This document shows positions 26,886-30,605 of a DNA stretch of 64,000 nt, one piece after another; the stretch's first letter is position 1; each line of letters begins with the position of its first letter. Location of the stretch: positions 3,268,664 to 3,332,663 of the forward strand of contig CP030158.1 of the NCBI GenBank assembly GCA_003285105.1, written 5' to 3'. This DNA is from Roseithermus sacchariphilus. Lineage in GTDB: Bacteria > Bacteroidota > Rhodothermia > Rhodothermales > MEBIC09517. The position numbers were made by a program, and so were the translations under genes. The notes under the pieces were generated by a model. The model had not been told where the DNA came from, did no database searches, and was given only the letters and a program-made list of their open reading frames with translations.

Positions 26886-26923
26886 GCCGGAACGGGTGCC
26901 TGCCCGGAGGGGCCTGGCCCGGA

Positions 26924-26952
26924 TTGACACCCCCCCGGGCGGCCCCTACTTT
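26924..26952 (+). promoter_or_regulatory. Promoter of the rhamnosidase/STING unit
   Basis: TTGACA (26924-26929), 17-bp spacer, TACTTT (26947-26952), followed by G so that it also ends in TTTG as in Bacteroidota -7 boxes. The predicted transcript starts near 26959, only about 12 bases before ATG 26971. Confidence 0.7.
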
Positions 26953-26970
26953 GAGGCGTGTCCCGGTCCG

Positions 26971-29418
26971 ATGACGAACTCGCCTGCTTCCATGATCGCT
27001 ACGCCACGGGCGCGGGTGCGCCCCCGGTGGCAGCCCGCCGCCGGCCTCCTCGCCCTGCTTTTCCTGACGGCCTCCGGCAGCCTCGCCCAGCCGTCCCCCC
27101 TCATCGACCGGGCCCTGCTCGAACGGCCCTGGACGGCCCGCTGGATCTCCCACCCCACGGCGGACCGCACGGCGTACGGCGTGTTCTTTTTCCGGCATAC
27201 GATCGATCTGGACACGGTCCCGGCGCAGTTCGTGGTGCATGTCTCGGCCGACAACCGGTACCGGCTGTACGTCAACGGCACGTCCGTCAGCCACGGCCCG
27301 GCCCGGGGCGACATCGAGAACTGGCGGTACGAGACGGTGGACCTGGCGCCCTATCTCCAGCCCGGGACGAACGTGCTGGCGGCGGTGGTCTGGAACTACG
27401 CCGAGCATCGCCCCGTGGCGCAGTGGACCCGCGAGACGGCCTTCCTCCTGCAGGGCAACACCGAGCAGGAGTCGGCCGTGAACACCGATGCGCGGTGGCA
27501 GGTCTTGCAGAGCCGCGCCCATGCGCCCATCCCCGTCGACCGCAGCCGGCTCGGGTTTCCCTGGCGCCCTTACATCGTCGTGGGCCCCGGTGAGGCGTTC
27601 GACGCGCGGGCCTATCCCTGGGGCTGGACCACCGGTGAGGACGCGGAAGAAGGCTGGCAGCCTGCGCTGGAACTGCGTGGGGCCGTGCCCAAGTGGGGGC
27701 ACCATCACGACATCTACCTGGCCTGGAAGCTGATCCCCCGCGAGATTCCGCCGATGGAGGAGCACCCGCAGCGCATCCCGGCCATCCGGCGCAGCGAGGG
27801 GATGGCGGTGCACGAGGGCTTCCTGTCCGGCACGAGCCCGCTGGAGATCCCCGCCGGCGCCCGCGTCTCCCTGCTGCTCGACCAGACGTACCTGACGACC
27901 GGCTATCCCGTGCTGCGGACGAGCGGCGGGCGCGATGCCACCGTCACGCTGACCTATGCCGAGGCGCTCTTCGACGAGCGCGGACGCAAGGGGAACCGCA
28001 ACGACATCGAGGGCAAGGCGATCTATGGCTATCAGGACCGCTTCGTGCTGGACGGAGGCGCCGAGCGGACGATGAGCACGCTGTGGTGGCGAACCTGGCG
28101 CTACCTGCGCGTCGAGATCGAGACGGCCGCGGAGCCGCTTATCCTGCATGACCTGCACGGCCTCTTCACGGCCTACCCGTTCGAGCAGCGGGCCTCGTTC
28201 GCCGGCAGCGACGACAGCCTGCGCGACATCTGGGACGTCTCCTGGCGTACGGCTCGCCTCTGCGCCGGGGAGACGTATTTCGACTGCCCCTACTACGAGC
28301 AGCTCCAGTACGCCGGGGACACACGCATCCAGGCCTTGATTTCCCTCTACGTGGCCGGAGACGACCGGCTCATGCGCAAGGCCATCGAGCACTTCCACGA
28401 CTCCCGCATGCCCGACGGGCTCACCGAGAGCCGTGCCCCGGCGTGGGAGGAGCAGTACATCCCACCCTACTCCCTCCTGTGGATCGCCATGATCCACGAC
28501 TACTGGATGCATCGACCCGATTCCGCCTTCGTCGCGCGGTACCTGACGGGCATCCGGGGAGTGCTGGAATGGTACGAACGCTACATCGACGATACCGGGA
28601 TGCTCGGCCCCATGCCCTGGTGGAACTTCGTCGACTGGGCCTACCCGCGCGGGGTGCCCCCCGGTGCCGACGACGGCCACTCGACCGTGGTCACCCTGCA
28701 GTACATCTACGTGCTTCGCATGGCTGCCGACCTGGCCGAGGCCTTCGGGCGGAGCGAGGAGGCGGCGTACTACCGCCAGCGGGCGGCCTCCCTCGGCGAG
28801 GCGACGTACCGGCTCGCCTGGAACGAGGCGCGGGGGCTGCTGGCCGATACCCCCGAGCAGACGGTCTTCAGCCAGCACGCCAACGCCATGGCGATCCTGA
28901 CGGACCTCATCCCGCTGGCCCGGCAACCGGAGGTGATGCAGCGCGTGCTCTCCGACACGTCGCTCGTACAGACCACCTACTACTATCGGTTTTACGTCAC
29001 GCGGGCCATGAAGAAGGCGGGGCAGGCCGCCGAGTACCTGCGCCACCTCGGCCCCTGGCGGGAGATGCTGGACCTGGGGCTGACCACCTTCGCCGAGGAG
29101 CCGGACCCCACGCGGTCCGACTGCCACGCCTGGAGCGCCAGCCCCAACTACGACTTCCTGGCCACCGTGCTGGGGATCGAACCGGCATCGCCCGGCTTTG
29201 CGACGGTGCAGGTGGCCCCCGCGCTGGGCTCGCTGACCTGGGCCGAGGGGCGTATGCCGCACCCGTCCGGCACCATCGAGGTGCGCCTCCGAAGGGCCGG
29301 TGCCCGGGGCCTGGAAGGGGACGTAGTGCTCCCGGACGGCGTCACCGGCACGTTCGTCTGGAACGGACGGTCGTATCCGTTGCAGGGCGGCCCGCAGACG
29401 ATCGCGCTCACGGAATAG
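26971..29418 (+). CDS. Secreted alpha-L-rhamnosidase (GH78-like)
   Basis: 815 aa from ATG 26971; ATG 26992 is an equally good start, since the signal peptide (LLALLFLTASGSLAQ) follows both. N-terminal beta domains (FVVHVSADNRYRLYVNG) precede an (alpha/alpha)6 barrel. GETYFDCPYYEQLQYAGDTR (around residues 425-445) is the GH78 general-acid region, and EEQYIPPYSLLW and SDCHAWSASPNYDFL follow in order, then a C-terminal beta-sandwich. It releases L-rhamnose from plant or algal glycans or flavonoids, fitting the rhamnose isomerase 5 kb away. The STING-like gene starts 8 bp after its stop. Confidence 0.85.
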   Translation: MTNSPASMIATPRARVRPRWQPAAGLLALLFLTASGSLAQPSPLIDRALLERPWTARWISHPTADRTAYGVFFFRHTIDLDTVPAQFVVHVSADNRYRLYVNGTSVSHGPARGDIENWRYETVDLAPYLQPGTNVLAAVVWNYAEHRPVAQWTRETAFLLQGNTEQESAVNTDARWQVLQSRAHAPIPVDRSRLGFPWRPYIVVGPGEAFDARAYPWGWTTGEDAEEGWQPALELRGAVPKWGHHHDIYLAWKLIPREIPPMEEHPQRIPAIRRSEGMAVHEGFLSGTSPLEIPAGARVSLLLDQTYLTTGYPVLRTSGGRDATVTLTYAEALFDERGRKGNRNDIEGKAIYGYQDRFVLDGGAERTMSTLWWRTWRYLRVEIETAAEPLILHDLHGLFTAYPFEQRASFAGSDDSLRDIWDVSWRTARLCAGETYFDCPYYEQLQYAGDTRIQALISLYVAGDDRLMRKAIEHFHDSRMPDGLTESRAPAWEEQYIPPYSLLWIAMIHDYWMHRPDSAFVARYLTGIRGVLEWYERYIDDTGMLGPMPWWNFVDWAYPRGVPPGADDGHSTVVTLQYIYVLRMAADLAEAFGRSEEAAYYRQRAASLGEATYRLAWNEARGLLADTPEQTVFSQHANAMAILTDLIPLARQPEVMQRVLSDTSLVQTTYYYRFYVTRAMKKAGQAAEYLRHLGPWREMLDLGLTTFAEEPDPTRSDCHAWSASPNYDFLATVLGIEPASPGFATVQVAPALGSLTWAEGRMPHPSGTIEVRLRRAGARGLEGDVVLPDGVTGTFVWNGRSYPLQGGPQTIALTE

Positions 29419-29426
29419 GCCCCCTC

Positions 29427-30203
29427 ATGGCTCCACCCTCTACCCGCCTCATCGAACGCCTCTTCCAGGGGCTCGGGATGCTGCTCTTTGCCGCCAGCGT
29501 CGCCCTGGCCGCGCTCTGGCTGCGCTATGCCGATCGGTTCAACTTCGAGCCGTATCTGGCGCTCCTGGGGCTGCTCTATCCGGCGCTGCCGGTCATCGGG
29601 CAGTGGGTCGTCGGACGGCTCAACCGGGAAGTCGAGCAGGAGCGCGTCTCGATGGCCTATGCCCTCGCGTACGGATACCTGGACAACTACCTGGCGCCCG
29701 TCATCCGGCAACTCAGGCGGACGCTGCCGGAGCCGGAGCGGCTGCGTTTCTACGTGTACATCCCGGAGCGGCTCGATGAACTGCGCGGAGAGGCGATTCA
29801 GGATCTGCTGGACGAACTCGCGCGCCGGTCCTACACGGTTGAAGCCCTGGAACTGGACTTCCCCGGCCAGAAACGCCGCCGGGATCTACGCACCGCCCGC
29901 CGTCTGGACCCCGACGGGCAGGCGGAAACCGTCAAGTACTTCGACTTTCCGACGACGCTGCTCACGCTCGAACCGGCCATCCTCTACCGGCTCAACTCTC
30001 CCAGCGGCCACCTGCCCTACCGGGAGATGCGGCGGCTGGGACGGGTCTACATTCAGGAGTTTCGCCGGCAACTCGAAAGCCTGCTGCGCGAAGGCCCGTA
30101 CCGCCTCATCTGCAAGCACGTGGTGATCGTCGACGGAGGAGCCGATTTCCTCGAGCGACCGCCGGAGCCGGACGAGGCACGCTGTGGCGGGGAACCCGGT
30201 TGA
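29427..30203 (+). CDS. Two-TM protein with a prokaryotic STING domain (TM-STING), no cyclase beside it
   Basis: 258 aa from ATG 29427. TM1 is about residues 12-33 and TM2 about 43-62, with a short cytoplasmic linker, then a domain of about 170 residues. AYALAYGYLDNYLAPVI (77-93) fits the dimer/ligand helix of bacterial STING, RFYVYIP (107-113) the central strand, and YFDFPTTL (171-178) the nucleotide-contacting DxPTT segment. Asp173, Thr177 and Arg155 have the same spacing as Asp169, Thr173 and Arg151, which I recall as c-di-GMP contacts in characterised bacterial STING. Two-TM forms are known CBASS effectors. No CD-NTase or other CBASS gene is within this window; the neighbours are a rhamnosidase (8 bp upstream) and a cold-shock gene. 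STING assignment is by motif memory, not a search. Confidence 0.7.
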   Translation: MAPPSTRLIERLFQGLGMLLFAASVALAALWLRYADRFNFEPYLALLGLLYPALPVIGQWVVGRLNREVEQERVSMAYALAYGYLDNYLAPVIRQLRRTLPEPERLRFYVYIPERLDELRGEAIQDLLDELARRSYTVEALELDFPGQKRRRDLRTARRLDPDGQAETVKYFDFPTTLLTLEPAILYRLNSPSGHLPYREMRRLGRVYIQEFRRQLESLLREGPYRLICKHVVIVDGGADFLERPPEPDEARCGGEPG

Positions 30204-30380: not shown

Positions 30381-30605
30381 ATGGCACGTGGAAGAGTCAA
30401 ATGGTTCAGTGTAGAAAAAGGCTACGGCTTCATTGAACCAAAGGATGGAAGCAAAGATGTTTTCGTCCACCGGAACAACGTTGCCGGCCTCGGCTGGGAC
30501 GAAGGGCTCCGGGATGGAGAAGAAGTCGAGTACGAAGTCGAGCGGACGCCCAAAGGTCTGAGCGCGCAGAACGTCGAGCGCGTCGAAGGCGACGGGATGT
30601 TCTAG
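30381..30605 (+). CDS. Cold-shock domain protein (CspA family)
   Basis: 74 aa. MARGRVKWFSVEKGYGFIEP holds RNP1 (KGYGFIEP) and DVFVHRNN holds RNP2, the nucleic-acid-binding motifs of the single cold-shock domain. The preceding 177 bp is lower in GC than its surroundings and lacks a gene, consistent with the long structured leader of csp mRNAs. The frame is open further upstream but only ATG 30381 gives the family N-terminus. It ends at a strong terminator. Confidence 0.93.
   Translation: MARGRVKWFSVEKGYGFIEPKDGSKDVFVHRNNVAGLGWDEGLRDGEEVEYEVERTPKGLSAQNVERVEGDGMF

What the first reader, a model, noticed from the sequence alone, without database searches (positions are those of the whole stretch)
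29427..30203. Orphan TM-STING in a sugar-utilisation region
The protein has two TM helices plus a STING-like domain: AYALAYGYLDNYLAPV, FYVYIP and YFDFPTTL, with Arg155, Asp173 and Thr177 at the spacing of the c-di-GMP contacts recalled for bacterial STING. Known bacterial STING proteins are CBASS effectors beside a CD-NTase. Here none is adjacent; the gene starts 8 bp after a rhamnosidase gene and shares its promoter. It may be a CBASS effector separated from its cyclase, or STING used as a c-di-GMP sensor outside defence.
Basis: partly seen in the sequence, partly recalled or inferred. Interest (0 to 1): 0.85.

Follow-up and report, generated by a model that had tools for sequence, protein, structure and literature searches.

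The report
Stand-alone membrane STING without its cyclase
This bacterial gene makes a small membrane-anchored version of STING, the cyclic-dinucleotide immune receptor; unlike the textbook bacterial STINGs, it and its close relatives carry no partner signal-making enzyme of the usual kind beside them or elsewhere in their genomes, so what switches them on is an open, testable question.

Summary
The ORF at 29427-30203 is an intact 258-aa protein with a two-helix membrane hairpin and a genuine STING domain (Pfam prok_STING E=6.8e-22; nearest solved structure FsSTING, by sequence and by fold). No CD-NTase lies in the 64-kb window.

The complete 4.8-Mb genome holds one STING, no STING-type CdnE and no GGDEF c-di-GMP synthase. 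Its one CD-NTase match lies 1.36 Mb away, inside a complete type IV CBASS operon with its own 2TM effector.

The gene is not a one-off. Five relatives (41-56% identical: two in the same order, three Bacteroidota MAGs) share the subfamily's features. None has a CD-NTase in its flanks, and none of their genomes has a STING-type CdnE; all seven CdnE-operon control genomes do. One orthologue pair has dN/dS of about 0.08. The rhamnosidase neighbour is not shared, so the sugar link is probably incidental.

Corrections: the lid arginines are R150/R152, not R155. The lid motif is R-x-[R/K] (class II-like, as FsSTING), so c-di-GMP specificity is not implied.

Best reading: a stand-alone, cyclic-dinucleotide-gated membrane receptor/effector. 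Ligand and physiological output are unproven.

The parts
29427..30203 (+). TM-STING gene, 258 aa
   Evidence: ORF; PF20300 E=6.8e-22; model and fold match; five homologues 41-56% identical
29427..29642 (+). N-terminal two-helix membrane hairpin, residues 1-72, with conserved N39-x-E41-P42 and LLGLxY motifs
   Evidence: alignment A5; helices 4-34 and 41-72 in the model; found only in this subfamily at E<=1e-5 in 395 genomes
29655..30077 (+). STING cyclic-dinucleotide-binding domain, residues 77-217
   Evidence: PF20300; 6wt4 alignment
29676..29690 (+). Y84-x-x-N87-Y88, equivalent to FsSTING Y88-x-x-N91-F92 (base-stacking aromatic) at the dimer pocket
   Evidence: alignments; contact identities from PMC8748872 and PMC10739871
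29874..29882 (+). beta-strand lid motif R150-R151-R152, class II RXR-like (R-x-[R/K] in the subfamily)
   Evidence: alignments; class definition from PMC8748872
29937..29960 (+). Y171-F-D173-F-P-T176-T177-L motif: D173 = FsSTING D169, T177 = FsSTING T173
   Evidence: alignments
26896..29418 (+). upstream alpha-L-rhamnosidase-like gene, 8 bp before the STING ATG; probably an incidental neighbour
   Evidence: PF17389 E=4.4e-32; not seen beside any homologue
30381..30605 (+). downstream cold-shock protein gene, not part of the system
   Evidence: PF00313 E=1.2e-21

Best explanation
The gene encodes a stand-alone, inner-membrane STING: two N-terminal helices anchor it and a cytosolic STING domain forms the dimeric cyclic-dinucleotide pocket. 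It belongs to a Bacteroidota subfamily that has parted from (or never had) a cognate CD-NTase. Most likely mechanism: the domain dimerises around a cyclic dinucleotide made elsewhere in the cell (or during infection), the lid closes, dimers assemble side by side into filaments as in other bacterial STINGs, and the attached hairpins cluster in the membrane and change or breach it. Shown here: domain, hairpin, pocket residues, absence of a STING-type CdnE, conservation. Inferred: topology, ligand binding, oligomerisation, membrane effect. The ligand is unknown; the only housekeeping cyclic-dinucleotide synthase found in this genome is a CdaA-type c-di-AMP cyclase.
For: STING domain and fold. Single STING in a complete genome; no STING-type CdnE (best E=0.02, which is the type IV enzyme); no GGDEF; one CdaA-type DAC. 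The same architecture recurs in L039/G404, L019/G215, L047 and L048, with a partial copy in L049, with no CD-NTase in the flanks or, by the STING-type CdnE profile, in the genomes; PF18144 also finds none in them. Positive control: the same profile finds CdnE at E<1e-125 in all seven CdnE-operon STING genomes. Purifying selection: L047/L048 dN 0.007, dS 0.092. The five complete orphan TM-STINGs plus the FsSTING-type TM-STING form a clade (95/93), the orphans together 89/79. No match in plasmids, phages or viral contigs. Oligomerisation and lid closure on cyclic-dinucleotide binding are established for other bacterial STINGs (PMC8748872, PMC10739871).
Against: No biochemical evidence of binding or of any membrane effect. 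TM-STING function is stated to be unclear even for the operon-borne ones (PMC10732462). CD-NTases of clades far from SMODS and CdnE could be missed. The relatives are draft genomes (G404 is 83% complete), and L039, L048 and L049 have short flanks. The clade support is modest and the bootstrap had not settled.
Confidence: 0.55

Rival explanations
1. A receptor for a housekeeping cyclic dinucleotide, most simply c-di-AMP, used for membrane, osmotic or infection-stress control. This is a more specific form of the best explanation.
For: A CdaA-type DAC is the only housekeeping cyclic-dinucleotide synthase found here. ElSTING binds c-di-AMP, and PMC10739871 reports from earlier work that STING genes are linked to DisA in some bacteria. 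Stable chromosomal loci and purifying selection fit a resident function.
Against: The guanine-reading aspartate and arginine are retained. c-di-AMP binding did not activate ElTIR-STING (PMC10739871). DAC is common in bacteria, so its presence says little. Patchy distribution (6 of 114 genomes in the order carry any STING) fits defence better than housekeeping.
Confidence: 0.25
2. Split CBASS: the STING is a second effector driven in trans by the distant type IV CBASS CD-NTase.
For: The genome has one CD-NTase match, in a complete QueC-TGT-CD-NTase-2TM-OGG operon at about 1.94 Mb, and CBASS signals diffuse in the cell.
Against: That operon already has its own 2TM effector. None of the five relatives' genomes matches PF18144 or the STING-type CdnE profile. 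The type IV enzyme is distant from STING-partner CdnE (E=0.02).
Confidence: 0.12
3. A c-di-GMP sensor outside defence.
For: D173, T177 and R150 line up with residues used for guanine recognition in bacterial STING; one relative (G404) has a GGDEF protein.
Against: No GGDEF domain in this genome nor in G215, G814, G815 or G816. The lid is R-x-[R/K] as in class II FsSTING, not the c-di-GMP-specific R-x-[Y/F] (PMC8748872).
Confidence: 0.1
4. A decaying leftover of a former CBASS operon.
For: Patchy occurrence and lack of a cyclase.
Against: Intact reading frame, conserved pocket and hairpin across the subfamily, dN/dS about 0.08 in one orthologue pair.
Confidence: 0.05

Closest known systems
FsSTING-type TM-STING (Flavobacteriaceae; PDB 6WT4), here represented by L023/G021
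   Same: N-terminal hydrophobic helices plus prok_STING domain; R-x-R lid; D and T pocket residues; joined in the tree (95/93); best sequence and fold match
   Different: The FsSTING-type gene in L023 lies 6 bp from a CdnE gene; the window subfamily has no CdnE in the genome, a distinct conserved NxEP hairpin, TT instead of NT after YFDFP, and R-x-[R/K] rather than strict R-x-R
TIR-STING CBASS effectors (SfSTING, PcSTING, MySTING)
   Same: STING domain with a conserved D-x-P-T-T-like motif
   Different: N-terminal TIR NADase instead of a TM hairpin; class I R-x-[Y/F] lid in these characterised ones; usually a CdnE gene beside them
ElSTING (Epilithonimonas lactis), c-di-AMP-binding bacterial STING
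   Same: Y, N, aromatic and TT pocket residues also present here; high-ranking fold match 8hwj, E=8.0e-7
   Different: TIR-fused; whether the window protein binds c-di-AMP is untested
Metazoan and bacteria-like eukaryotic STING
   Same: Membrane-anchored STING not genetically linked to its cyclase
   Different: Four TM helices rather than two; independent origin of the TM fusion (PMC10732462)

Membership tests
Prokaryotic STING domain (PF20300) | Profile match above the curated cut-off | tested here: met
   78.4 bits against 27.1
Prokaryotic STING domain (PF20300) | STING fold | tested here: met
   6wt4 first by Foldseek, TM-score 0.75 on target, 50 of 50 listed hits are STING; model confidence is moderate
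Prokaryotic STING domain (PF20300) | Pocket residues (stacking aromatic, lid arginines, Asp, Thr) | tested here: met
   Y88, R150/R152, D173, T177 by alignment to FsSTING
Prokaryotic STING domain (PF20300) | Cyclic-dinucleotide binding and oligomerisation | not testable with these tools
   needs purified protein
CBASS effector | CD-NTase in the same operon | tested here: not met
   none in the 64-kb window; none found beside five relatives
CBASS effector | Cognate STING-type CdnE somewhere in the genome | tested here: not met
   for this genome; for relatives, with seven positive controls
CBASS effector | Anti-phage activity through cell death or growth arrest | not testable with these tools
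   needs a phage challenge assay
Class I (c-di-GMP-specific) bacterial STING | R-x-[Y/F] lid motif | tested here: not met
   R150-R151-R152; R-x-[R/K] in relatives
Class II (RXR) bacterial STING | RXR lid motif | tested here: met
   R150-x-R152 in the window protein, R-x-R in L019; but R-x-K in L039, L047, L048 and L049

The most novel reading that the evidence does not exclude
A lineage of bacterial STING that has left CBASS altogether: a single-gene, membrane-embedded receptor gated by a housekeeping or infection-altered cyclic dinucleotide (for example c-di-AMP), with the two-helix NxEP hairpin as the output module. This would be a bacterial parallel to the genetically unlinked, membrane-anchored STING of animals.
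Probability: 0.3. Interest if true: 0.75.

Novelty: new variant of a known kind. Interest (0 to 1): 0.52.

Why it matters
Bacterial STING is usually described as the effector of a linked CD-NTase, mostly sensing c-di-GMP. A conserved membrane STING with neither the linked cyclase nor, in this organism, any GGDEF enzyme raises the question of what bacterial STING senses when uncoupled from CBASS, and gives a small set of proteins with which to test it. It also bears on how bacterial TM-STINGs work, which the literature calls unclear (PMC10732462).

Tried and rejected
A sugar-utilisation role: rejected as unsupported, because no homologue has a rhamnosidase neighbour. Chance similarity: rejected. 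Mobile or phage origin: no match in plasmids, phages or viral contigs, and the GC of the gene (about 0.65-0.69) resembles its surroundings. Shared hairpin module with other effectors: the hairpin profile found only this subfamily in 395 genomes; weak matches in L051/L052 resemble it in the NxxEP region but were not pursued. The first genome-contig search with the single protein gave nothing; the three-row alignment gave five loci. PF18144 is not a sufficient test for STING-type CdnE, since it misses most of them, so the CdnE profile A1 was used instead. Burroughs and Aravind 2020 (PMC7685563), which may already mention orphan STINGs, is not held.

Full report
Observation. The ORF at 29427-30203 (+) encodes 258 aa and starts 8 bp after the stop of a rhamnosidase-like gene. 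Pfam finds one domain, prok_STING, at E=6.8e-22 over residues 77-217. The best solved relative is FsSTING, 6wt4, E=3.1e-13. PADLOC matches a TIR effector model only over its STING half. An AlphaFold2 model from five aligned homologues (mean pLDDT 71.6, pTM 0.61) shows helices 4-34 and 41-72, then the mixed STING fold. Foldseek against PDB ranks 6wt4 first (E=2.1e-7, TM-score 0.75 on the target), and every one of the 50 rows listed is a STING.

Pocket. Using the 6wt4 alignment and the contacts given in PMC8748872, FsSTING F92, R151, R153, D169 and T173 correspond to Y88, R150, R152, D173 and T177. PMC8748872 divides bacterial STING into class I (R-x-[Y/F], c-di-GMP-specific) and class II (R-x-R, FsSTING, proposed to prefer 3'3'-cGAMP). 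The window protein is class II-like; relatives have R-x-R or R-x-K. The sequence therefore does not support a specific claim for c-di-GMP.

Genome context. The genome is a single 4.8-Mb contig, 99.98% complete, with one STING. A profile built from seven STING-partner CdnE proteins (A1) finds only a weak match (E=0.02) to a CD-NTase 1.36 Mb away, which PF18144 also finds (E=3.5e-13). That enzyme sits in an operon of QueC, TGT, cyclase, 2TM effector and OGG proteins by PADLOC (E=3e-53, 4e-104, 3e-122, 1e-33, 5e-78). This is the make-up of type IV CBASS (established knowledge; the titles and abstracts cover its QueC/TGT-family parts), so the enzyme has its own effector. There is no GGDEF domain. 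There is one DAC enzyme with a CdaA N-terminal domain. Limit: CD-NTase clades remote from both profiles could be missed.

Relatives. In 395 genomes of the phylum, 15 carry 16 STING places; in 114 genomes of the order, 6 carry STING. The same TM-STING subfamily was found in G404 (L039, 56% identity), G215 (L019, 43%), and MAG contigs L047 and L048 (about 42%) and L049 (partial). Their neighbours are unrelated to each other except in L047/L048, which share gene order: PhzF and a histidine kinase near L019; a PD40 beta-propeller protein next to L039; M13 peptidase, TPR and CBS proteins at L047; CheR near L049. No CD-NTase was found in these flanks or in the 64-kb window with the A1 model, the type IV enzyme or a DncV-like enzyme as query.

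Control for the absence. One search covered 16 genomes with the A1 profile. All seven whose STING lies beside CdnE gave E<1e-125. None of the nine with orphan STINGs matched: five of this subfamily (G215, G404, G814, G815, G816) and four with other orphan STINGs (G263, G231, G278, G172). The seven positives are the genomes from which A1 was built, so they show only that the search works; the informative part is the nine negatives. GGDEF is absent from G215, G814, G815 and G816 and present once in G404.

Evolution. A tree of 22 STING domains joins the five complete orphan TM-STINGs with the FsSTING-type operon-borne TM-STING (95/93), with the five orphans together at 89/79. The bootstrap had not settled and several other rows have long branches, so deeper order is unresolved. 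Between L047 and L048, dN is 0.007 and dS 0.092, which indicates purifying selection in that pair. The hairpin keeps N39-x-E41-P42 and LLGLxY nearly unchanged and, at E<=1e-5, occurs in 395 sampled genomes only in this subfamily. It is more conserved than a plain anchor would need to be, which suggests a working part (inference).

Interpretation. The domain, architecture, pocket and absence of a STING-type CdnE are shown. The sided topology (both ends cytosolic) is inferred from the arginines before the first and after the second helix. Ligand binding, oligomerisation and membrane action are inferred from other bacterial STINGs. The best reading is a stand-alone cyclic-dinucleotide-gated membrane protein. 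Whether it serves defence or homeostasis is undecided: patchy distribution argues for defence; stable chromosomal settings and lack of mobile copies argue for a resident role. A claim of CBASS membership fails on the tested feature (linked or cognate CD-NTase), but the protein may still work like a CBASS membrane effector.

Novelty. STING fused to TM helices is known; [quoted passage not shown] PMC10739871 reports, from earlier work, STING genes linked to DisA and STINGs lacking the standard motifs. The literature searches gave no description of a conserved cyclase-less TM-STING subfamily, but the survey most likely to hold one (PMC7685563) could not be read. I therefore rate it a new variant of a known kind.

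Noticed in passing
L018:7319-11221 (G000:C1 about 1939318-1943220): Complete type IV CBASS (QueC, TGT, CD-NTase, 2TM effector, OGG) in the window's own genome.
   Followed up: yes
L040:6945-9551: TIR-STING in an operon with a DncV-like CD-NTase (PF21654 E=2.5e-20) and an E2-like protein, instead of the usual CdnE.
   Followed up: partly
L024:7297-9763: TIR-STING directly after a cytidine-deaminase-like gene and a small protein matching PADLOC PDC-M50A; no CdnE found. Possibly an undescribed defence gene set.
   Followed up: partly
L021:8436-9596 and L022:9173-10389: Another orphan STING-domain protein with an N-terminal hydrophobic segment, next to a DUF4440/SnoaL-like gene in two genomes of one genus; no STING-type CdnE in either genome.
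   Followed up: partly
L038:9204-11380: TIR-STING overlapping a DUF7790 gene rather than a CD-NTase.
   Followed up: partly
L019 and L020: Genome G215 carries two dissimilar orphan STINGs, the second at a contig edge.
   Followed up: no
L051 and L052, around position 1500: Short ORF with a similar NxxEP two-helix hairpin followed in another frame by an ATPase-like reading frame, possibly a frameshifted gene.
   Followed up: no
L047:10001-11482 and L048:6200-7681: The STING gene and the adjacent TPR gene are much less diverged between these two MAGs (dS 0.05-0.09) than flanking genes (dS 0.25-1.6), as if that block had recombined recently.
   Followed up: partly
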